DNA of 64,000 bases from Pseudomonas rhizosphaerae (GTDB lineage: Bacteria; Pseudomonadota; Gammaproteobacteria; Pseudomonadales; Pseudomonadaceae), in NCBI RefSeq assembly GCF_000761155.1, contig NZ_CP009533.1, forward strand, positions 930,001 through 994,000. Direction: 5' to 3'. The notes under the pieces are model-generated. The model worked only from the letters and a program-made list of their open reading frames with translations, was not told the DNA's origin and ran no database searches. Below are positions 48,528-57,960 of the stretch, one piece after another; the first letter of the stretch is position 1, and each line of letters starts with the position of its first letter. Position numbers and translations under genes: made by a program.

Positions 48528-49967
48528 TCAGACCCCTGCCAGGCTCAACGAACGCACGTCTCGCCGCGCCAGCAGCCAATAGAAACCGCCACCCAGGAAG
48601 CAACCGGTGAACCAGGCGAAGTTGGCGATCGGCTTGAACCAAGGCACGAAGGTCACGACCACCCCGATCAGCGTCGCCGCCAGCAGCGCCTTGATTGCCA
48701 CCGGGTTGAAGCCGTTGCTGTACCAGTAGCGCCCGCTCGGTGAGTCATCGAACAGCGCCGCCACGTCGATCCGCTGCTGCTTGATGCAGTAGTAGTCCAC
48801 CAGCAGGATCCCGAACAGTGGGCCGATGAAAGTCGCCAGCACGTCGAGGGTGTAGTGGATCACTTCGGGGTTGTTGAACAGGTTCCAGGGGGTGATGAAG
48901 ATCGACGCCACCGCGGCAATCATCCCGCCCGCACGCCAGCTGATCTTGCTCGGCGCGCAGTTGGCGAAGTCGAAGGCCGGCGAGACGAAGTTGGCGACGA
49001 TATTGATGCCGATCGTTGCCGTGACGAACGCGAATGCGCCCAATAGCACCGCAACGTCGTTGTCGATGCGCGCTACCGTCGCGATGGGGTCGTGAAGCAT
49101 TTCGCCGAACACGGGCAAGGTGCCCGATACGATCACCACAGTGACCAGCGAAAACGCCAGGAAATTGACCGGCAAGCCCCAGAAGTTGCCGCGCCGCACA
49201 TCCGCCATGGTCCGGCAATAACGGCTGAAATCGCCAAAGTTCAGGGTCGGACCGGAGAAGTACGACACCACCAGGGCGGTCGCCATCACCACCTGGCCAA
49301 AGGCTTCCCAGCCGCTCAGGGATTTTTCCGCAAGGGTAAAGCTGATGTTGCTCCAGCCCGCTTTCCAGACGATCCAACCGGCGAGAATGAACATCGCTGC
49401 GTAGACCACCGGCCCGGCCCAGTCGATGAAGCGCCGGATCGAGTCCATGCCGGTCCAGAACACCGCTGCCTGCACCGCCCACAAGAACAGGAAGCCCATC
49501 CAGCCCAGGTACGACAAGCCCGCAAACTGCACCTGTGCGTAGCTTTCCATGCCAGGGAAGAAGCGCAACACCACGATGATCAGCGCGCTGGAGGCCAGGT
49601 ACGTCTGCACGCCGTACCAGGCGACCGCGATCAGGCCGCGGATCACCGCCGGAATGTTCGCGCCGAACACGCCGAAGGCCAGTCGGCAGATGACCGGGTA
49701 CGGTACAGCGGCCTGCTGGCTGGGCTTGGCGACCAGATTGGCGATCACCTGAATGATCCCGATGCCCACCAGCAGCGCGATCAGCACCTGCCAACTGGCC
49801 AGGCCCAGGGCGAACAGGCTGGCAGCGAACACATAGCCGCCGACGCTGTGCACATCGCTCATCCAGAAGGCGAAGATGTTGTACCAGTTCCACTTCTGCG
49901 CCACCGGGCCCAGGTCTTCGTTGTACAAGCGAGGGCTGTAGCCCTTGGGAAGGTCGGGATTGTTCAC
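48528..49967 (-). CDS. NCS1-family nucleobase/hydantoin:cation symporter
   Basis: This 479-residue, twelve-span protein of PF02133 has SPRLYNEDLGPVAQKWNWYN and FWMSDVHSVGGYVFAASLF at the N terminus, as in Mhp1-like carriers. WNLFNNPEVIHYTLDVLATFIGP lies late. A racemase and GntR regulator diverge from it, so hydantoin, allantoin or a related ureide is a good guess. The start is set at GTG 49967 with GGAG seven bases upstream. An in-frame ATG at 50006 would add 13 residues but has no ribosome site. Confidence 0.82.
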   Translation of the reverse strand: MNNPDLPKGYSPRLYNEDLGPVAQKWNWYNIFAFWMSDVHSVGGYVFAASLFALGLASWQVLIALLVGIGIIQVIANLVAKPSQQAAVPYPVICRLAFGVFGANIPAVIRGLIAVAWYGVQTYLASSALIIVVLRFFPGMESYAQVQFAGLSYLGWMGFLFLWAVQAAVFWTGMDSIRRFIDWAGPVVYAAMFILAGWIVWKAGWSNISFTLAEKSLSGWEAFGQVVMATALVVSYFSGPTLNFGDFSRYCRTMADVRRGNFWGLPVNFLAFSLVTVVIVSGTLPVFGEMLHDPIATVARIDNDVAVLLGAFAFVTATIGINIVANFVSPAFDFANCAPSKISWRAGGMIAAVASIFITPWNLFNNPEVIHYTLDVLATFIGPLFGILLVDYYCIKQQRIDVAALFDDSPSGRYWYSNGFNPVAIKALLAATLIGVVVTFVPWFKPIANFAWFTGCFLGGGFYWLLARRDVRSLSLAGV

Positions 49968-50022
49968 GCACACGCTCCAGGGTCGTGGCCGTTCCGGGCA
50001 TTGCATACGGAGATCGGCAGGG

Positions 50023-50033
50023 TTGTATACGAT
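50023..50033. promoter_or_regulatory. Operator-like site TTGTATACGAT in permease promoter
   Basis: The 11-mer with a GTATAC centre is of the type bound by GntR/FCD regulators. The same 11-mer is at 50234-50244 upstream of the regulator gene itself. It lies 56 bases upstream of the permease start. Confidence 0.65.
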
Positions 50034-50233
50034 CTGCCGAGCAGGATGCGTGCCAGAGAGTATCGAGGCCTTAGGCAACGGGGTGTGTAGCCATAATCTG
50101 GCCGGTGCAAGACTGTCCGCAAGACTATGTGAGCGCCTCTTTTAGCGCATCTAAACGCTGCCGAGACCCGTGTTGGTGCAGCGGCAATGCTTCCCATACG
50201 TTGCAAGACGAGCGTTGGCCAAGGCCGGCCTCT

Positions 50234-50244
50234 TTGTATACGAT
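50234..50244. promoter_or_regulatory. Operator-like site TTGTATACGAT in GntR promoter
   Basis: Second copy of the 11-mer, 31 bases upstream of the GntR start codon, suggesting autoregulation. Confidence 0.65.
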
Positions 50245-50274
50245 TGTCCCCGTGTGATCCCAGGAACCGATTCC

Positions 50275-50988
50275 GTGAACTCTCGTCTTTTTCTTGCCAA
50301 CAGCGTTGATGGTGCGACTGCGACCAGCCGCGACGAGCACATTTATCAGGAGATTCTCGACGCTATCGTCGAGCGTCGCTTGCAGCCCGGCGTGCGCCTT
50401 CCTGAAGATGCCTTGGCCGAGGTGTTCAACGTCAGCCGCACGGGCATTCGCAAGGCCTTGCAGCGGTTGGCGCTGGAACGGCTGGTCACCTTGCGTGCGA
50501 ACCGCGGCGCGGAAGTGGCGCACCCCAGTGCCAAGGAGGCCCAGGACGTGTTCGCCGCTCGGCAACTGATCGAGCCTGCGCTGATGCCGACCGTGGTCGC
50601 CCATGCCACGGCCGAGCATTTCAAGCAACTGCGCGAGCTGGCCGAACAGGAGCAGCAGGCGCAACGCCAAGGCAGGCACAGCCATGCCATTCAGCTGTCG
50701 GCGCGCTTTCACGTGCAGCTCTCGGTGGCCGCCGACAACCAGGTGCTCAGTGAGCAGATCGCCCAGTTGACTACCCGCTCTTCATTGATCATCGCGGTGT
50801 ACGGCTCGCGCCACAGCGTCGGCTGCGATTGCGGCGAGCATGGCGAGTTGATCGAACTGCTGGAACGCGGGGAGGGCGCCCAGGCGTCGAACTGGATGGC
50901 CCGGCATCTGGCGAGCATTCGCGCCAGCCTTCAGCTGGACGCCAAGCCCATGGCCGAACCCGACTTCAAATCTATCTTCAAGCGCTAA
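50275..50988 (+). CDS. GntR/FCD-family transcriptional regulator
   Basis: This 237-residue protein has an N-terminal winged HTH ([20 protein letters not shown], then [20 protein letters not shown]). The all-helical FCD domain has conserved Asp/His positions ([25 protein letters not shown]). FCD domains bind metal and small carboxylates or ureides. It is the first gene of a pair with the racemase, 19 bases apart, and divergent from the permease. The start is GTG 50275 with AGGA upstream. Confidence 0.85.
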
Positions 50989-51007
50989 TGCAGCCGTCGA
51001 GTCCCGT

Positions 51008-51742
51008 ATGAAAGTTCAGGTCATCAACCCCAACACCAGCCAGTCCATGACCGCCAGCATCGGCCGCGCAGCGCGTGCCGCCGCCGGCCCCGACACGCAG
51101 GTCATCGCCTGTTGCCCAGACGATGGCCCGGAATCTATCGAAGGCCACTTCGATGAAGCCATCGCCGCCGTGGGTGTGCTGGAAGAAGTGCGCAAGGGCG
51201 TAGCCGCCGGTTACGACGCGCACATCATCGCCTGCTTCGGCGACCCCGGCCTGCTGGCCGCCCGCGAGCTGGCACGCGGCCCGGTGATCGGCATCGCCGA
51301 AGCCGCCTTCCATGTCGCCAGCCTGCTGTGCACCCGCTTCGCCGTGGTCACCACGCTCACCCGCACACGCATCATCGCCGAGCACCTGCTGCGCAACTAC
51401 GGCATGGCCGAGCATTGCACCTCGGTACGCTGCGTCGACATCGCCGTGCTGGAACTTGAAACCCTGGGCGACGATGCATTGGTCGAGCGCATTGCCGAAC
51501 AGGCCCTGCAAGCCCGTGACCACGAAGGCGCCGGCGCCATCGTGCTGGGATGCGGCGGTATGGCGGACCTGCCAGCGCGGGTCAGCGAACGCGTCGGCCT
51601 GCCCGTGATCGATGGCGTGGCCGCAGCGGTGAAGCTGGCGCAAGTGTTGGTGGAAATGGGATTGGGGACGAGCAAGCACGGGGATCTGGCGTATCCGCTG
51701 GCGAAGCGGTTCAGTGGACGGTTTGGGCATTTTGGGGGGTGA
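51008..51742 (+). CDS. Asp/Glu/hydantoin racemase family protein
   Basis: This 244-residue protein has the two catalytic cysteines of the family: Cys76 in IIACFGDPG and Cys182 in IVLGCGGMAD. The N-terminal PNTSQSMT is characteristic of hydantoin/allantoin racemases. It interconverts enantiomers of 5-substituted hydantoins or allantoin. No hydantoinase, carbamoylase or allantoinase is visible in the window, so the degradation genes must lie elsewhere. Confidence 0.83.
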   Translation: MKVQVINPNTSQSMTASIGRAARAAAGPDTQVIACCPDDGPESIEGHFDEAIAAVGVLEEVRKGVAAGYDAHIIACFGDPGLLAARELARGPVIGIAEAAFHVASLLCTRFAVVTTLTRTRIIAEHLLRNYGMAEHCTSVRCVDIAVLELETLGDDALVERIAEQALQARDHEGAGAIVLGCGGMADLPARVSERVGLPVIDGVAAAVKLAQVLVEMGLGTSKHGDLAYPLAKRFSGRFGHFGG

Positions 51743-51799: not shown

Positions 51800-52765
51800 T
51801 CACGCTTCAGTTGCCACTGCAACGTGCAACATCTTCTCAAGTGCTGTTCTCACGTCGTTTTTGCTTTGCTCGGTCACGGCCCCCGGGTACTGATCGAACA
51901 TATGAGGCACGCCTGGGTAGACGTGCATCTCCACCGGAACGCCGGATCGTGACAATTTCACACCGAATTCCACGTTTTCTTCCAAAAACAGATCCAGCGC
52001 GCCAACACCGATGAAGCTCGGTGGAAGGCCCTCGAGATGGGGCGCGAGCGAAGGAGACAATAAATACGCTCGTTCATCATTGGCCTCGTATCCCCCTTGC
52101 ATGCACTGCCAACAGAAATGGTTCGCCGCTCGCGACCAACTCAGCCTGCCTGTCGTCAGGTTATTCATGGTCGATGAGGCAGATCCCGTTCGATGATCGA
52201 GCATGGGGTAAATCATCACCAGACCTGCAGCCTTGCGTTGCTCCCTGTCTCTTGCCAACAGCGCCAGAGCGGCAGCGAGCCCGCCCCCGGCGCTGTGGCC
52301 CATGATGACTATTCTATGTTCGTCTATGCCTTGGGAAGCCGAGTTGAGACGCATCCAGGTCAGTGCCCTGTAGCAATCCTCGAGGGGCGCCGGGAAAGGA
52401 TGTTCCGGCGCCAGGCGATAGTCGACTGCAACCACGACGACCTTTAGATCGTCGGCAAGGCCGGCCAGATAGCCGTCCGCCATCTCCGGACAACCCAGAA
52501 CGAAGCCACCCCCGTGGATATACAGAATCGCCGGCAATGGTGGGTTTTGGGTCGGTCTGGATCTTGGTCGATGAATGCACAAGCGCACCGGTGGACAGGC
52601 ACCATCACCCTCGGTCCATTGTTGCTGGCCGTGAGTCGTGTCGGCTGAGGGATAGTCGTTGTGGATGTGATCCCGGATGCTTGCAAGGGTTTCTCGAGTC
52701 CACAGCCTGGTGGGCTCGGTCAGGAACAATTCATAGGACGGATCAAGGAGCCTATCGGTGTACAT
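51800..52765 (-). CDS. HSL-family alpha/beta hydrolase (esterase)
   Basis: This 321-residue enzyme has the oxyanion motif HGGG at residues 84-87 (YIHGGGFVLG). The nucleophile is Ser158 in GHSAGGG. The acid is probably Asp in GVGALDLFLEEN and the His is in GVPHMFDQYPG. VVAVDYRLAPEHPFPAPLEDCYRAL is typical of the hormone-sensitive-lipase group. AAGGAACAGCCTG precedes ATG 52765. It is the last gene of the SDR-MFS-transketolase operon; it may open an ester or lactone before or after import. Confidence 0.85.
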   Translation of the reverse strand: MYTDRLLDPSYELFLTEPTRLWTRETLASIRDHIHNDYPSADTTHGQQQWTEGDGACPPVRLCIHRPRSRPTQNPPLPAILYIHGGGFVLGCPEMADGYLAGLADDLKVVVVAVDYRLAPEHPFPAPLEDCYRALTWMRLNSASQGIDEHRIVIMGHSAGGGLAAALALLARDREQRKAAGLVMIYPMLDHRTGSASSTMNNLTTGRLSWSRAANHFCWQCMQGGYEANDERAYLLSPSLAPHLEGLPPSFIGVGALDLFLEENVEFGVKLSRSGVPVEMHVYPGVPHMFDQYPGAVTEQSKNDVRTALEKMLHVAVATEA

Positions 52766-52814
52766 CAGGCTGTTCCTTCTCGGCATCGGGGGCACGCAGC
52801 CCCCGGGGAACGAT

Positions 52815-53837
52815 TCAAAGCCAGCCCTTGATCTGGGCGCATACGGCCTGGGTTGAAATGCCGTAACGATCGTGCAGCGTAGGCAGAGCACCAGCGTCGA
52901 GAAAGGCGTCGGGCAATGCAATTTGCCGGAATGCAGGCGTGACACCGTTTCGCAGCAGCACAGTCGCCACTGCTTCACCCAGACCACCAATGATCGAATG
53001 GTTCTCTGCCGCCACGACCAGCCTGCCTGGCTTTCGAGCTTCCGCCAGAATGGTTTGCTCGTCCAGTGGCTTGATGGTGGGCACGTGAAGTACAGCCACA
53101 TCGATGCCATCGGCTTGAAGTGCCTTGGCGGCCTCCAAGGCCCGCATGGTCATCAAGCCGGTCGAGATGATCAGCACGTCATTGCCTGTGCGCAGGGTCT
53201 TGGCTTTTCCAATCTCGAAGGTGTAGCCATATTCGTCCAGTACCAGCGGAACGTTGCCGCGCAGCAGACGCATGTACACCGGCCCGTTGTGAGCGGCGAT
53301 GGCGGGAACGGCCTGCTCGATTTCGAGCGCATCGCAGGGGTCGACAATCATCAGATTCGGCATCGCGCGGAAGATGGCCAAATCATCGGTGGCTTGGTGG
53401 CTGGGCCCATAGCCGGTCGTCAACCCCGGCAACCCGCAGACGATCTTTACGTTGAGATTTTCTTCGGCGATGGCCATGCAGATGAAATCATAGGCACGGC
53501 GCGAGGCGAACACTGCATAGGTAGTGGCAAAGGGAACGAAGCCTTCGCGGGCCATGCCTGCAGCGGCACTCATCAGCAGCTGTTCAGCCATGCCCATCTG
53601 GTAGAACCGGTCGGGATGCGCCTGGGCGAAGATATGCAGATCGGTGTATTTGGCCAGGTCGGCGGAAAGTCCGACGATATCCTGCCGCTCTGCAGCCAGG
53701 GCCGCCAGTGCATGGCCAAAAGGCGCCGATCGGGTTGCCTGGCCTTCAGAAGCAATCGACGCAATCATTGCAGAGGTCGTGAGTTTCTTCTTGGCGGCCG
53801 CTGGAGCCTGGGCTGCGTCGTTCTTCAAGTCGTTCAT
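52815..53837 (-). CDS. Split transketolase, C-terminal (pyrimidine-binding) subunit
   Basis: This 340-residue protein is the second half of a transketolase. The pyrimidine-binding domain holds FYQMGMAEQLLMSAAAGMA (with the cofactor-activating Glu), then GLTTGYGPSHQATDDLAIFR and the transketolase C domain GNDVLIISTGLMTMRAL. Its ATG overlaps the stop of the N-terminal subunit (ATGA). A 40-residue Ala/Lys-rich N-terminal tail precedes the domain. Together the two move a C2 ketol unit using thiamine diphosphate. The acceptor and donor cannot be read from sequence. Confidence 0.88.
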   Translation of the reverse strand: MNDLKNDAAQAPAAAKKKLTTSAMIASIASEGQATRSAPFGHALAALAAERQDIVGLSADLAKYTDLHIFAQAHPDRFYQMGMAEQLLMSAAAGMAREGFVPFATTYAVFASRRAYDFICMAIAEENLNVKIVCGLPGLTTGYGPSHQATDDLAIFRAMPNLMIVDPCDALEIEQAVPAIAAHNGPVYMRLLRGNVPLVLDEYGYTFEIGKAKTLRTGNDVLIISTGLMTMRALEAAKALQADGIDVAVLHVPTIKPLDEQTILAEARKPGRLVVAAENHSIIGGLGEAVATVLLRNGVTPAFRQIALPDAFLDAGALPTLHDRYGISTQAVCAQIKGWL

Positions 53838-54682
53838 ACGGTGTCCCCTTCTTCGAGGTGGTTCAAGGCCAGGTTCCACTCATGCTCGTCCACGCGAATG
53901 AAATGGGCCTTCTCCCGGGTTTCAAGAAACGGCACGCCTCTGCCCATTTTGGTATCGCAGATGATCACTCGCGGCTGCGTTCCGCCATGACTGCGCGCGG
54001 CATCGAAAGCCTCGACCAGCGCGTCCAGATCATTGCCATCCACGCGCTGCGTGAACCAGCCAAACGCCTGCCAACGGTCAACGATGGGTTCGAAGGCCAG
54101 CACCTCGCTGGAGCGGCCATCCGCTTGTTGATTGTTGACGTCCACGATGGCGATCAGATTGTCGAGCTTCCAGTGAGAAGCAGACATCACCGCTTCCCAG
54201 GTCGACCCTTCGTTCAACTCACCGTCGGACAGCAGATTGTAGACGAACGAGTCGGAACCTTTGCGCTTGAGCCCCAGGCACGCACCAACAGCAATGCCCA
54301 GGCCCTGGCCCAGCGAGCCGCCGGTGATTTCCATCCCCGGGGTGTAGGTTGCCATCCCGGACATCGGCAGGCGGCTGTCATCGGAACCGTAAGTTTCGAG
54401 CTCGTCCAGCGGGACGATTTCCGCTTCGATCAGTGCCGCATACAGCGCAATGGCGTAGTGGCCAATGGAGAGATAGAAGCGGTCACGCTGTTCCCATTCG
54501 GGGTCATGGGGCTTGTAATTCAGCGCGTGAAAGTAGGCCACAGCGAGCAAGTCAGCAGCTCCCAGCGCCTGACCGACGTAGCCTTGGCCTTGAACCTGGC
54601 CCATGCGCAGCGCATGACGGCGAATATTGAGGGCACGTTGTGCCAGTGATGTTTCTGAAACAGCGGGCGAAATAGCAGTCAT
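53834..54682 (-). CDS. Split transketolase, N-terminal (TPP diphosphate-binding) subunit
   Basis: This 282-residue protein contains the ThDP motif LLSDGELNEGSTWEA ending in VDVNNQQADG (GDG-X-NN type, with Ser in place of the first Gly). An early block has RDRFYLSIGHYAIALYAAL with the catalytic His, and GSLGQGLGIAVGACLGLKRK. It needs the adjacent C-terminal subunit. Split transketolases are usual for archaea and for accessory sugar pathways rather than the housekeeping TktA. The gap to the MFS gene is 18 bases. Confidence 0.88.
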   Translation of the reverse strand: MTAISPAVSETSLAQRALNIRRHALRMGQVQGQGYVGQALGAADLLAVAYFHALNYKPHDPEWEQRDRFYLSIGHYAIALYAALIEAEIVPLDELETYGSDDSRLPMSGMATYTPGMEITGGSLGQGLGIAVGACLGLKRKGSDSFVYNLLSDGELNEGSTWEAVMSASHWKLDNLIAIVDVNNQQADGRSSEVLAFEPIVDRWQAFGWFTQRVDGNDLDALVEAFDAARSHGGTQPRVIICDTKMGRGVPFLETREKAHFIRVDEHEWNLALNHLEEGDTV

Positions 54683-54700
54683 TCCAAGTACTCCGTGGAC

Positions 54701-56002
54701 TCAACGATTGACCGAAGCGGCGGGGATTCGCAGTACCAGGCAGGCACCGATGCACAGCACGCCGGTGATGAGGTACATCCCTATCGCGCTCGATCCGGTC
54801 GTAGTGGTAATCCAGCCAATCAAGTAGGGCGAGCAGAAGCCGGCGAGGTTGGCGAAGCTGTTGATGCCGGCGATCCCCGCAGCGGCTGAGACCCCGCCCA
54901 GCAGTGTGGTCGGTAGCATCCAGAACAAGGAAGAGGCAGACAGAACGCCTGCAGCCGCCAGGCAGAGGCTCAGGACAGAGAAGACCAGGTTGGCGCCGAA
55001 GATGGCTGCCAACGTAAGACCCAAGGCCCCGGCGATCATGGGTGCAATCAGGTGCCACCGACGTTCGCGGTGCTTGTCGCCACTTCGGCCCATCAGCAAC
55101 ATGGCCACGATGGCGCACATGTAAGGCAGGCTGGTGACCAGGCCAATGTGTAGCGGGTCGGAAACCCCGGCGTTGCGAATCAAGGTCGGTAGCCAGAAGG
55201 TGATCGCGTATTGACCCATCACGACACAGAAGTAGATGCAGGCGAGCATCCACAGGCGACGATCGCGCAGGAAGTCGCGGACCGAACCGTGAGTGACCTT
55301 ACGGCTGTTGTCTTCCGCCAATTCCTTGGTCACCAGCTCCTTTTCTTCATCGGTAAGCCAGGTGGCCTGGTGTACACCATCCTTCAGATACGCCAGTACG
55401 AAGAAGCCAACGATCACCGTAGGTATCGCTTCAATGACGAACATCCACTGCCAGCCGGCCCATCCGTGAAAGCCTGCGAATTTGGCCATGATCAAGCCGG
55501 AAAGGGGTCCGCCGATCATTCCGGAAAGTGGAATCGCGATGAACCAGAGCACGGTCATCTTGGCTCGGCGATACGAGGGGAACCAGTAGGTCAGGTAGAG
55601 CAGCAACCCCGGCGCCAGGCCGGCTTCGGCGATGCCCAGCAGGAAGCGCAGCACATAGAACTGCCAGGCCGTTTCGACGAAGGCGAACAGGGCGGAGATA
55701 ATGCCCCACGAGATCATGATGCGGGCGATCCATCGACGCGCCCCCACTTTGTGAAGAATCAGATTGCTGGGCACTTCGCAGAGAAAATAGCCAAGAAAGA
55801 ACATGCCGGCACCGAGGCCGTACACAGTTTCACTCAGTGACAAGTCACTCATCATTTGCAGTTTGGCGAAGCCCACATTGACGCGATCCAGATAGGCACA
55901 CAGATAACAGAGCATCAAGAAAGGCATCAGCCGCCAGGCAGTTTTGCGATAAGCATTCGAGCGCACGGTCGAAACCGCTTCGAGCGTCATGGAAGTCATC
56001 AT
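54701..56002 (-). CDS. ACS-family MFS transporter (sugar acid/dicarboxylate type)
   Basis: This 433-residue, 12-span protein of the anion:cation symporter family has the signature MLCYLCAYLDRVNVGFAKLQ in the first span and GYFLCEVPSNLILHKVGARR. Then FLLGIAEAGLAPGLLLYLTY is typical of tartrate, galactonate and phthalate permeases. It most likely imports an organic anion. ATG 56002 and 55999 are both possible; GGA lies five bases before the first. It is second in the SDR-led operon. Confidence 0.85.
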   Translation of the reverse strand: MMTSMTLEAVSTVRSNAYRKTAWRLMPFLMLCYLCAYLDRVNVGFAKLQMMSDLSLSETVYGLGAGMFFLGYFLCEVPSNLILHKVGARRWIARIMISWGIISALFAFVETAWQFYVLRFLLGIAEAGLAPGLLLYLTYWFPSYRRAKMTVLWFIAIPLSGMIGGPLSGLIMAKFAGFHGWAGWQWMFVIEAIPTVIVGFFVLAYLKDGVHQATWLTDEEKELVTKELAEDNSRKVTHGSVRDFLRDRRLWMLACIYFCVVMGQYAITFWLPTLIRNAGVSDPLHIGLVTSLPYMCAIVAMLLMGRSGDKHRERRWHLIAPMIAGALGLTLAAIFGANLVFSVLSLCLAAAGVLSASSLFWMLPTTLLGGVSAAAGIAGINSFANLAGFCSPYLIGWITTTTGSSAIGMYLITGVLCIGACLVLRIPAASVNR

Positions 56003-56102
56003 GATTGTCCGATCTCTTGTTTTTATAGACGGCCAGGCGCTGTGGCCTGGCATGCCATCGATCTAGAACACCACGGGTCACTGGCGACCCGGTTACCGGC
56101 CC

Positions 56103-56852
56103 TCAGTGGATCAGCATGCCGCCATTGACATCCAGCGTGATGCCAGTGAGGTATGAAGACAGATCGCTGGCCAGAAACAGCGCAGCGTTGGCGACATCCT
56201 GAGCCGCGCCCAGGCGACCCAGCGGAATGCCGTCGATGATCGCGTGGCGACGCTCGTCTTGCATCAAGCCTCCCGTGATATCGGTATGAATCAGGCCGGG
56301 AGCGATGGAGTTGACACGGATATTGTCCGGACCGAATTCCCTGGCCATCGCTTTGCCAAGGCCCAATACGCCCGCCTTGGCGGCGCTGTAGTGCGGGCCA
56401 CCGAATATGCCGCCGCCACGTTGAGCCGATACTGAAGACATGCACACGATGCTGCCGGAAGCTTGGCTCTTCATGACCGGAATGACGGCTTGGGACATGA
56501 GCAAAGTGCCACGCAGGCTGACATCCAGCACCTTGTCGTAGTCCGAAGGGCGGATATCGAGGGTCTTGATCGGCTGGGTAATGCCTGCGTTGTTGACCAG
56601 AATGTCTATTCGCCCGAACTGCGCGATGACCTTGTCCACGGCCTGCTTGACCTGGTGTTCATCCGCGACGTTGGCGGCCAGACCCAGATGGCCTTCACCC
56701 AACGCCGAAGCGGCGTCGCGCGCGGCGGATTCATCGAGATCCACAATGACGACATGGGCACCCTGCTGGGCGAACGTGATGGCCGTGGCCCGGCCAATTC
56801 CGCGCTCAGATGCAGCACCCGTGATGATTGCGACTTTGCCTTGAAGAAGCAT
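56103..56852 (-). CDS. Classical short-chain dehydrogenase/reductase
   Basis: This 249-residue NAD(P)-dependent SDR has the nucleotide motif TGAASERGIGRA (residues 11-22), NNAG (87-90), and catalytic Ser140, Tyr155 and Lys159 (YSAAK). Asp38/Asp40 after the second strand suggest NAD preference. It probably oxidises a hydroxyl of the imported compound. The family cannot be narrowed further. It is the first gene of the operon. AGGA lies eight bases upstream of ATG 56852; the frame stays open further upstream without conserved sequence. Confidence 0.88.
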   Translation of the reverse strand: MLLQGKVAIITGAASERGIGRATAITFAQQGAHVVIVDLDESAARDAASALGEGHLGLAANVADEHQVKQAVDKVIAQFGRIDILVNNAGITQPIKTLDIRPSDYDKVLDVSLRGTLLMSQAVIPVMKSQASGSIVCMSSVSAQRGGGIFGGPHYSAAKAGVLGLGKAMAREFGPDNIRVNSIAPGLIHTDITGGLMQDERRHAIIDGIPLGRLGAAQDVANAALFLASDLSSYLTGITLDVNGGMLIH

Positions 56853-56881
56853 GGGGGAGTTCCTGTGATTGTTTTTATGAT

Positions 56882-56897
56882 TCGATTCGGGAATCGA
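56882..56897. promoter_or_regulatory. Palindrome TCGATTC-GG-GAATCGA in the divergent promoter
   Basis: Perfect seven-base arms with a two-base centre. It lies 30 bases upstream of the SDR ATG and 146 bases from the LysR ATG. The location suits an operator of the divergently read LysR protein or another repressor. Confidence 0.55.
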
Positions 56898-57042
56898 TGA
56901 CTCAGGGTGTTCCGCCAACGCATTGGCAGCAATATGGCAAACCTCACTGCTGGCTGAGAAAAATTCACCTCTCGTCAGCAGGCCCGCGGAATGCTTGAAT
57001 GAGACTCGCCCATAACATCTCAACAATAAGAGCCGAGTACTT

Positions 57043-57960
57043 ATGCGCCTCCACGACAGTGCGCCCCGGGACCTGCCACCGCTGAGGGCCATTCAAGCCT
57101 TCGAGCAAACGGCCCGCTTTGGCAATCTCGCCAGAGCCGCCGAAGTATTGAATCTGACACCCTCAGCCGTGAGCCATCAGTTGGCGAATCTGGAAGCGAT
57201 GATTGGCCGCCAGCTGTTCGTGCGCGCAGCCCGTGGCGTCACCCTCACCCCGGTGGGCGAGCAGTACCTGAAGGATATTTCCGGCTTGTTGCACAGCCTT
57301 GAAGTGGCAACCGAAAGAGCCGCCAGTGACGTGAGTCTCGACTGCCTGCGACTGCACTCGTCGCCAAGCTTCGGCCTGCTTTGGCTGATGCCGCGCCTGG
57401 AAGCATTCCGCGTGAGTCATCCCGATATCCAGATCAACCTGTCGTGTTCCTACGAGTCACTACACTTTAGCCGGGACAAGATCGACGTCGACATACGCCA
57501 TGGCCTGCCCAACTGGCCCAGCTACGAAGTGCGAACGGTGCGCAACGAAGCCTTTGCGGTGCTGGCCTCCCCGCAGTTATTGGCAAAACGTCCAGTCGCC
57601 AGCGCCAGTGACTTGTTGAACAAGGAACTGATCCTTTCCGAAGCGACGCTGCTCCAATGGCCTGAATGGTTCGCCCAGCACGGCCTCGCCCGCCCCGAAC
57701 ATCCCTATGCGTTGAGCTTCGATCGCTCCTACATGACATTGGAAGCTGCCAGCCACGGCCTTGGGTTCGCACTGGAAAGCACGCTGCTGGCACAGAAATA
57801 CCTGGCATCGGGCGCACTCGTGGAAGTGGCTCCTGAAGCGCTCAGCGCTGCGGTTGCTGCTCACCACTTGGTGTTTCCCAAAGCCCACTCGTCCTTTCCC
57901 AGGGTCAGACGGTTTCTGACGTGGATGGAGGGGGAGATGGGGCATCGGTTTGTATTTTGA
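57043..57960 (+). CDS. LysR-family regulator (GcvA-like)
   Basis: This 305-residue protein has an N-terminal winged HTH (LPPLRAIQAFEQTARFGNLA, then NLTPSAVSHQLANLE) and a periplasmic-binding-like effector domain with RLHSSPSFGLLWLMPRLEAF. It resembles the GcvA/AmpR-like branch. It is divergent from the SDR-MFS-transketolase-esterase operon and is its probable activator or repressor. A convergent terminator separates it from leuS. Confidence 0.87.
   Translation: MRLHDSAPRDLPPLRAIQAFEQTARFGNLARAAEVLNLTPSAVSHQLANLEAMIGRQLFVRAARGVTLTPVGEQYLKDISGLLHSLEVATERAASDVSLDCLRLHSSPSFGLLWLMPRLEAFRVSHPDIQINLSCSYESLHFSRDKIDVDIRHGLPNWPSYEVRTVRNEAFAVLASPQLLAKRPVASASDLLNKELILSEATLLQWPEWFAQHGLARPEHPYALSFDRSYMTLEAASHGLGFALESTLLAQKYLASGALVEVAPEALSAAVAAHHLVFPKAHSSFPRVRRFLTWMEGEMGHRFVF

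What the first reader, a model, noticed from the sequence alone, without database searches (positions are those of the whole stretch)
51800..57960. Operon of split transketolase, SDR, MFS permease and esterase with divergent LysR: possible undescribed catabolic pathway
Five genes read together (SDR, ACS-family MFS, transketolase N and C subunits, HSL-type hydrolase), with an ATGA overlap between the transketolase halves, and are divergent from a LysR regulator. Seen: all motifs are intact. Known: split transketolases occur in accessory sugar pathways such as apiose or sulfoquinovose use, but those come with kinases or isomerases that are absent here. Inference: an imported organic anion or ester is hydrolysed and oxidised, then a C2 unit moves to a central-metabolism aldehyde, possibly with no phosphorylated intermediate. 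I know of no described pathway with this exact set.
Basis: partly seen in the sequence, partly recalled or inferred. Interest (0 to 1): 0.72.

Follow-up and report, generated by a model that had tools for sequence, protein, structure and literature searches.

The report
Split-transketolase sugar-acid catabolism operon
A small set of neighbouring genes, shared by many plant- and soil-associated bacteria, probably takes up an unidentified small hydroxy-acid, oxidises it, and uses an unusual two-piece transketolase to pass two of its carbons into ordinary metabolism; no description of this pathway was found here.

Summary
A LysR gene is divergent from SDR, MFS, transketolase-N, transketolase-C and HSL-type esterase genes, with an ATGA overlap between the transketolase halves. 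The conserved unit is four genes plus LysR: of 80 named loci, SDR is in 79, a LysR gene in 75, MFS in 67, the esterase in 13. It reaches Pseudomonas, Acinetobacter, Azotobacter, Pantoea, Burkholderiaceae and several alphaproteobacterial groups. Elsewhere TRAP transporters stand in for the MFS and, in five of 126 loci, a threonate-dehydrogenase-like enzyme for the SDR. In all 144 cassette transketolases checked (131 distinct) His26 is Tyr, His100 is Ser, and His461 and Asp469 are lost; Glu411 and His473 stay. Six other split transketolases keep His26 and His100. Best explanation: an imported polyhydroxy acid, most likely a tetronate, is oxidised at C3; the modified transketolase moves C3-C4 to a central sugar phosphate and releases a 2-oxo acid. 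Chemistry and substrate are inferred. Capped literature searches found no description. Conserved, patchy, testable; the esterase is accessory.

The parts
57043..57960 (+). LysR-type regulator, divergent (GcvA-like subfamily)
   Evidence: Pfam HTH_1 and LysR_substrate; NF008352 GcvA 249.5 bits, under the 288 cut-off; some LysR gene within 5 kb in 75 of 80 named loci
56955..56967 (.). candidate LysR box TGAGAAAAATTCA (T-N11-A, imperfect dyad) upstream of SDR
   Evidence: conserved TGAA-N5-TTCA dyad in an alignment of 30 LysR-SDR intergenic regions, window included
56103..56852 (-). SDR dehydrogenase (FabG-like), proposed to oxidise the C3 hydroxyl of the imported acid
   Evidence: Pfam adh_short_C2 240.9 bits; 80% identical to solved chain 7krk, which is 94% identical to the Acinetobacter baumannii cassette SDR in L056
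54701..56002 (-). MFS permease, nearest the D-galactonate-transporter subfamily; start uncertain (56002 or 56053)
   Evidence: Pfam MFS_1; TIGR00893 342 bits, under its 395 cut-off; start region read
53834..54682 (-). transketolase N subunit (ThDP domain), with H26->Y and H100->S relative to canonical transketolase
   Evidence: Pfam Transketolase_N 141.8 bits; alignment with the host's two full-length transketolases and the cassette copies
52815..53837 (-). transketolase C subunit (Pyr and C domains); H461->L, D469 lost beside a Tyr, E411 and H473 kept
   Evidence: Pfam Transket_pyr and Transketolase_C; closest solved chain 6yaj, the split transketolase of Carboxydothermus
53834..53837 (-). 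ATGA stop-start overlap of the two transketolase subunits
   Evidence: sequence; same in-frame overlap in 98 of 126 loci
51800..52765 (-). HSL-type alpha/beta hydrolase (esterase or lactonase), accessory
   Evidence: Pfam Abhydrolase_3 202.5 bits; HGGG and GHSAG motifs; a homologue within 5 kb in 13 of 80 named loci, 12 of them directly downstream

Best explanation
The cassette is a horizontally spread catabolic operon for a small anionic polyhydroxy acid, most likely a four-carbon tetronate such as L-threonate or D-erythronate. (1) The MFS permease, or a TRAP system elsewhere, imports the acid; in some Pseudomonas the esterase may first free it from an ester or lactone. (2) The SDR oxidises the C3 hydroxyl to give a 3-oxo-4-hydroxy acid. 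In some lineages a threonate-dehydrogenase-like beta-hydroxyacid dehydrogenase (bHAD) takes its place. (3) The two-subunit transketolase cleaves C2-C3, releases the C1-C2 part as a 2-oxo acid (glyoxylate for a tetronate), and transfers the C3-C4 unit to a central aldose phosphate such as glyceraldehyde 3-phosphate, giving xylulose 5-phosphate. No dedicated kinase is needed. (4) LysR controls the operon. Shown: gene content, conservation, partner substitution and active-site changes. Inferred: the reactions, their direction, the substrate, the regulation and the role of the esterase.
For: Conservation: of 80 named loci that hold TK-N, 80 hold TK-C, 79 SDR, 75 a LysR gene and 67 MFS. In 126 loci (125 distinct), within 7.5 kb: SDR 119, LysR 114, MFS 75, TRAP DctP 38. 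Both transporter classes suit organic anions (recalled). Dehydrogenase substitution: on the transketolase strand 116 of 126 loci have an SDR, 5 have only a bHAD (order TKN-TKC-bHAD-MFS), 5 have neither. Two of those five bHADs were scanned, from L108 and L115; their best model is L-threonate dehydrogenase NF043037, 204 and 208 bits, under the 350 cut-off. Twelve more loci carry a related bHAD; the three scanned score 284-316 bits. Logic: FabG-like SDRs and bHADs usually act on the beta hydroxyl (recalled). A beta-keto group next to a terminal CH2OH, the ketol a transketolase needs, arises only if the main chain has four carbons. Active site: all 144 cassette transketolases checked, 131 of them distinct, have Y for H26 and S for H100, no H461 and no D469, but keep E411 and H473. 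All six other split transketolases compared keep H26 and H100. These residues contact donor and acceptor hydroxyls or phosphate in canonical enzymes (recalled), so a non-canonical donor is expected. D-2-hydroxyacid-dehydrogenase-like genes lie near 4 of 126 loci; only the Skermanella one was scanned and it matches 2-hydroxyacid dehydrogenase and glyoxylate reductase models below their cut-offs, the other three are named from 33-38% identity to it. [quoted passage not shown]
Against: No substrate, expression or enzyme data were available. The scanned bHADs lie below the threonate-dehydrogenase cut-off, and LtnD itself gives the 2-oxo acid (PMC12540250, passages). A sugar-type ABC transporter and a fuconolactonase-like amidohydrolase follow the TRAP genes in rhizobial loci, and isomerase- and DHA-kinase-like genes sit near five copies; both suggest a sugar, lactone or tetritol in some lineages. 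Genomes of the family that carry the cassette more often also carry the DUF1537 sugar-acid kinase (11 of 17 against 17 of 181), so it is no simple replacement of that route; kinship confounds this. Loss of H461 and D469 is not special: a transketolase from a growth-tested apiose cluster lacks both too, which favours a branched donor as much as a straight one. Loss of H100, which binds the donor C1 hydroxyl (recalled), could mean a donor without that hydroxyl. Sixteen of 126 loci show neither an MFS nor a DctP on the transketolase strand.
Confidence: 0.38

Rival explanations
1. The substrate is a branched acid or ketose, for example 2-C-methyl-tetronate or an apionate-derived 3-oxo-isoapionate. 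Transketolase cleavage would release pyruvate or hydroxypyruvate instead of glyoxylate.
For: AptAB of the apiose cluster of E. coli SE15, a cluster type shown to support growth on apiose (PMC13001218, passages), also lacks H461 and D469; its donor is branched (recalled). That cluster also holds two SDR genes beside the split transketolase. A TRAP binding protein from a Burkholderiaceae cassette locus is 59-60% identical to 4OAN, whose ligand density I recall as modelled as acetolactate; the titles seen are cut before the ligand. A gene annotated OiaX, of apionate catabolism, lies about 7.5 kb from one cassette.
Against: AptAB keeps H26 and H100 and is only 34-35% identical. The genome holding a 100% match to 4OAN lacks the cassette transketolase and the gene's neighbours differ. 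OiaX was noticed in one locus only.
Confidence: 0.2
2. The substrate is a longer aldonate (C5 or C6). The SDR makes a 4-keto pentonate or 5-keto gluconate-type ketol, and the transketolase removes the terminal C2 unit, leaving tartronate semialdehyde or tartrate semialdehyde.
For: The MFS is nearest the D-galactonate transporter subfamily (342 bits, cut-off 395). The SDR matches a gluconate 5-dehydrogenase model (184.5 bits, cut-off 279) among many SDR models. [quoted passage not shown] An L-idonate 5-dehydrogenase gene lies upstream in one rhizobial locus.
Against: No aldehyde dehydrogenase for the released semialdehyde is in the window operon. Replacement of the SDR by a beta-hydroxyacid dehydrogenase does not fit oxidation at C4 or C5.
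Confidence: 0.17
3. The substrate is a tetritol or tetrulose. The SDR makes erythrulose from threitol, and the transketolase splits it into glycolaldehyde and a C2 unit.
For: DHA-kinase-like and isomerase-like genes near the same five of 126 loci; a D-threitol dehydrogenase is annotated about 6 kb beyond the cassette in one Shinella plasmid.
Against: The transporters are mostly of anion classes (recalled), and these neighbours were not found near the other 121 loci.
Confidence: 0.1
4. The transketolase works in the bond-forming direction, or with a donor lacking the C1 hydroxyl (DXS- or acetolactate-synthase-like), so the operon is not a simple catabolic route.
For: H100, which binds the donor C1 hydroxyl (recalled), is replaced in all copies checked. 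TK-C scores better with the DXS model than with the bacterial transketolase model TIGR00232 (195 against 79 bits).
Against: TK-C scores best with another transketolase model (254 bits). Dedicated importers and a dehydrogenase argue for catabolism.
Confidence: 0.1

Closest known systems
Split-chain transketolase of Carboxydothermus hydrogenoformans (PDB 6yaj/6yak)
   Same: two separate subunits, closest solved relatives by sequence (203 bits for N, 235 for C)
   Different: 6yaj keeps the H461 and D469 positions in the printed alignment; its gene neighbourhood was not examined
Apulose-4-phosphate transketolase AptAB (D-apiose catabolism; E. coli SE15 ECSF_RS02710/02715)
   Same: two-subunit transketolase in a catabolic cluster; H461 and D469 are also absent; the E. 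coli cluster also has SDR genes
   Different: keeps H26 and H100, 34-35% identical; its cluster has an FGGY kinase and a sugar ABC transporter, neither in the window operon
LtnD-OtnI-OtnK-OtnC threonate/erythronate pathway
   Same: proposed substrate class; threonate-DH-like enzymes substitute for or join the SDR in relatives
   Different: that pathway phosphorylates and decarboxylates to DHAP (PMC12540250, passages); no SBD_N (PF07005) kinase was found in the window's genome
SDR chain 7KRK/7KRM, deposited as 3-oxoacyl-ACP reductase
   Same: 80% identical to the window SDR and 94% to the A. baumannii cassette SDR in L056
   Different: deposited under a fatty-acid name; no paper naming the entries was found in the library
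Symbiotic-plasmid genes of Sinorhizobium fredii NGR234 (pNGR234a)
   Same: same LysR, SDR, TK-N, TK-C core
   Different: TRAP plus sugar-type ABC transporter and an amidohydrolase instead of MFS and esterase; no pathway is named in the record

Membership tests
Transketolase-type ThDP enzyme | Transketolase_N, Transket_pyr and Transketolase_C domains, here on two chains | tested here: met
   Pfam above cut-offs
Transketolase-type ThDP enzyme | catalytic glutamate E411 and H473 | tested here: met
   117 of 117 and 27 of 27 further loci
Canonical transketolase | substrate-site residues H26, H100, H461 and D469 | tested here: not met
   H26 is Y and H100 is S in 144 of 144; H461 is L in 143 and M in 1; no Asp at 469 in any, a gap or Tyr depending on the alignment; residue numbers and roles recalled
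Apulose-4-phosphate transketolase (AptAB) | AptAB-like active site | tested here: not met
   E. coli SE15 AptAB keeps H26 and H100, unlike the cassette; the loss of H461 and D469 is shared; one growth-supported cluster type only
Apulose-4-phosphate transketolase (AptAB) | cluster with a sugar kinase | tested here: not met
   kinase in the E. coli cluster; none among the window operon genes
OtnK-type tetronate pathway | DUF1537 / SBD_N kinase PF07005 | tested here: not met
   no match in the window's whole genome; the control search rang in 3 of 14 genomes
OtnK-type tetronate pathway | L-threonate dehydrogenase NF043037 in relatives | tested here: inconclusive
   204-316 bits in the five proteins scanned, cut-off 350
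D-galactonate transporter subfamily of MFS | TIGR00893 above its cut-off | tested here: inconclusive
   342 bits, cut-off 395
Sulfoquinovose transketolase pathway | 6-deoxy-6-sulfofructose transketolase activity | not tested
   papers seen in the search listing only

The most novel reading that the evidence does not exclude
A widespread, undescribed kinase-free route in which one dehydrogenase and a two-subunit transketolase with a rebuilt active site (H26Y, H100S, no H461, no D469) convert tetronates, the acids released when plants break down ascorbate, directly into a 2-oxo acid and a pentose phosphate. It would be a new transketolase specificity, with acid ketols as donors, and a carbon-conserving alternative to the decarboxylating OtnK/OtnC route.
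Probability: 0.25. Interest if true: 0.75.

Novelty: new variant of a known kind. Interest (0 to 1): 0.58.

Why it matters
A minimal dehydrogenase plus transketolase cassette recurs on chromosomes and plasmids across Gamma-, Beta- and Alphaproteobacteria, many of them plant-associated, with interchangeable transporters and dehydrogenases. If the mechanism holds, a common plant metabolite enters central metabolism without a dedicated kinase or loss of CO2. It would also define a transketolase subfamily by a clear residue signature, with possible biocatalytic value, sharpen plain 'transketolase' and 'FabG' annotations, and give a solved structure (7KRK) a metabolic context.

Tried and rejected
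Classical threonate kinase route in this genome: no PF07005. Replacement of the kinase by the cassette: not supported, as the two co-occur (11 of 17 against 17 of 181), kinship uncorrected. Promoter and terminator scan: one promoter-like site against 2.1 expected, 12 terminator-like against 4.0, not used.

Literature: 10 searches; searches returned nothing; lists were capped (25 of 695, 10 of 1,793, 15 of 74). By title and abstract start none of the listed papers is about this set. Passages were read in PMC7970118, PMC12540250, PMC3758355 and PMC13001218; PMC3758355 only lists single genes in expression tables. Two papers sought by DOI, on solute-binding-protein screens and on apiose, are not held.

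Limits. One search returned the best 80 of 567 loci, so named loci lean to close relatives. The 126 loci were chosen for the transketolase. Among the 144 transketolases checked several loci came twice, through a named and an unnamed route (131 distinct). One of the 28 late loci, L171 (44% identical), gave no joint TK-N/TK-C hit and was left out of the residue check. In one search the two loci L002 and L003, the host's full-length transketolases, were left out of the count and used as reference. Of the other split transketolases fetched, L125 was left out because its C part is annotated in two pieces. My ORF caller missed some genes, so counts come from tblastn. A structure model from one sequence was useless (pLDDT 37.8); the 35-row alignment gave 78.8. 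The tree was a quick one with long outgroup branches. On it the MFS/TRAP label needs 4 changes over 41 labelled rows and the SDR/bHAD label 1 over 48; I set the labels by hand and left other rows out.
Full report
What is in the sequence. The window lies at 930001-994000 of a 4.685 Mb single-contig genome. The nearest TK-N protein with a source name in the list is 98% identical and from Pseudomonas coleopterorum. Going left from the divergent LysR gene (57043-57960, plus strand), the minus strand carries SDR, MFS, TK-N, TK-C and an HSL-type esterase ending at 51800. TK-N ends in ATGA, whose ATG starts TK-C. The same in-frame overlap is found in 98 of 126 loci with both genes. The LysR-SDR interval holds a T-N11-A dyad conserved in an alignment of 30 sequences, the window and 29 Pseudomonas loci. 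This supports, but does not prove, one LysR-controlled transcript.

How widely it is kept. At E <= 1e-60 TK-N matched 17 of 198 genomes of the family, 2 of 229 of the class and 25 of 398 of the phylum, each count including the window's own genome, and 190 of 72,556 plasmid records. It is an accessory, patchy trait. Of 80 named genome loci (the best 80 of 567), 80 hold TK-C, 79 SDR, 75 a LysR gene, 67 MFS and 13 an esterase homologue within 5 kb. The esterase lies directly downstream in 12 loci, all among the 29 Pseudomonas loci L022-L050, at 51-65% identity; the transketolase halves in those 12 loci are 85-95% identical. The esterase is thus a lineage-specific addition.

What swaps. On the transketolase strand 75 have an MFS, 35 a DctP and 16 neither. 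TRAP genes beside the cassette are annotated on Sinorhizobium, Rhizobium, Agrobacterium, Azospirillum, Skermanella, Bradyrhizobium, Shinella and Sulfitobacter plasmids. In five loci, two of them on Klebsiella aerogenes and Pantoea piersonii plasmids, the order is TKN-TKC-bHAD-MFS with no SDR found. The two bHADs of that type that were scanned score best with L-threonate dehydrogenase (204 and 208 bits, cut-off 350); three bHADs from loci that also have an SDR score 284-316. Rhizobial loci add a sugar-type ABC transporter and an amidohydrolase whose only listed NCBIfam match is L-fucono-1,5-lactonase (108.7 bits, cut-off 400). Two Bradyrhizobium plasmid loci carry a gene annotated SMP-30/gluconolactonase nearby, with no NCBIfam match at E <= 1e-15. 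Together with the Pseudomonas esterase these are three unrelated hydrolases that could open an ester or lactone. I read this as a hint, not proof, that the acid also arrives in closed form.

The transketolase is unusual. I aligned the host's two full-length transketolases with 117 cassette copies and later with 27 more; 131 of the 144 are distinct. Every copy has Tyr for His26 and Ser for His100. His461 is Leu in 143 and Met in 1. Asp469 is missing in all: the loop is one residue shorter and a Tyr stands there or next to it, depending on the alignment. Glu411 and His473 are kept in all. Residue numbers are those of the E. coli enzyme, from memory. Six other split transketolases were compared: E. 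coli SE15 AptAB from an apiose cluster, and those of Apilactobacillus (annotated AptAB), Streptomyces, Methylovirgula, Phaeobacter and Agrobacterium. All six keep His26 and His100; His461 is kept in 3 and Asp469 in 1. So only the first two changes mark this clade; the other two are shared with AptAB of E. coli. In canonical enzymes His100 contacts the donor C1 hydroxyl, His26 and Asp469 the neighbouring hydroxyls, and His461 the phosphate; the His26-to-Tyr change is known to reverse stereoselectivity in the E. coli enzyme. All of this is recalled. A donor unlike a ketose phosphate is therefore likely.

Most likely working. Both transporter classes suit an organic anion (recalled). The SDR is FabG-like: its closest solved relative, 7KRK, is 80% identical, deposited as a 3-oxoacyl-ACP reductase, and 94% identical to the A. 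baumannii cassette SDR. FabG-like SDRs and the substituting bHADs generally work on a beta hydroxyl (recalled). A beta-keto group beside a terminal CH2OH exists only in a four-carbon main chain, plain or branched at C2. This leads to tetronates. Oxidation at C3 gives 3-oxo-tetronate, also an intermediate of the known four-step threonate pathway (PMC12540250, abstract and passages). Transketolase cleavage of C2-C3 would give glyoxylate and a C2 unit for glyceraldehyde 3-phosphate. That explains why no kinase is needed, and it fits the D-2-hydroxyacid-dehydrogenase-like genes seen near 4 of 126 loci. Transketolase attack on a keto acid has been proposed before, for 5-keto-gluconate (PMC7970118, passages). 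No reaction, direction or substrate has been shown here.

Evidence that cuts the other way. The 4OAN lead looked strong at first: a cassette DctP is 59-60% identical to it. I recall its ligand as acetolactate; the titles printed are cut before the ligand. The window's genome has no PF07005 kinase, yet in the family cassette genomes carry that kinase more often than others, 11 of 17 against 17 of 181 (not corrected for kinship). DHA-kinase- and isomerase-like neighbours in five loci, and an annotated D-threitol dehydrogenase near one Shinella copy, leave a tetrulose route open in some lineages. That E. coli AptAB shares the loss of His461 and Asp469 and sits with two SDR genes keeps a branched substrate in play.

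Place among known things. It is a member of the transketolase family by domains and catalytic residues, and it probably works like other catabolic split transketolases. It is not a canonical transketolase by the residues tested, and it differs from AptAB at His26 and His100 and in lacking the kinase of that cluster. Ten capped literature searches listed no paper on this set by title or abstract start; subscription papers are mostly not held, so 'undescribed' is limited to that library. I rate it a new variant of a known kind: a well-conserved, probably undescribed pathway with a distinctive enzyme, whose substrate can be found with straightforward experiments.

Noticed in passing
window 56103-56852; PDB 7KRK/7KRM: The solved chain deposited as 3-oxoacyl-ACP reductase is 94% identical to the Acinetobacter baumannii cassette SDR (L056) and 80% to the window SDR, so its fatty-acid name may be wrong.
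   Followed up: partly
L102 1152-3495 and 8185-10850; L116 8191-10823 and 16979-18676: The cassette lies within about 5 kb of nodS and nodU on symbiotic plasmid pNGR234a, and about 6 kb from nodU in Bradyrhizobium sp. 62B.
   Followed up: no
window 48528-51742: Next to the operon: an NCS1 permease of allantoin/nucleobase type, a GntR/FCD regulator and an Asp/Glu/hydantoin racemase, which look like a separate hydantoin or allantoin locus.
   Followed up: no
L066, L082, L087, L094, L098, L100, L101, L104, L150, L165: A full-length transketolase gene stands near the split cassette in 10 of 126 loci, in nine of them on the same strand; why two transketolases are needed is unexplained.
   Followed up: no
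G263 (L015 and L176): One genome of the same family carries two different cassettes, an SDR/MFS type and a bHAD/MFS type.
   Followed up: no
L121 1343-8672; L122 1-5724: Other split transketolases sit in likely biosynthetic settings: beside lysX and lysW genes in Streptomyces, and beside rfbFGH CDP-sugar genes in Methylovirgula.
   Followed up: no
L207 5834-10536: The gene for the 4OAN binding protein is followed by a DctQM-type permease and what looks by eye like an acyl-CoA ligase, suggesting that this TRAP feeds a CoA-dependent route.
   Followed up: partly
L218 17042-27989: The apiose cluster of E. coli SE15 pairs a split transketolase with two SDR genes, a parallel to the SDR plus split transketolase of the window.
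   Followed up: partly
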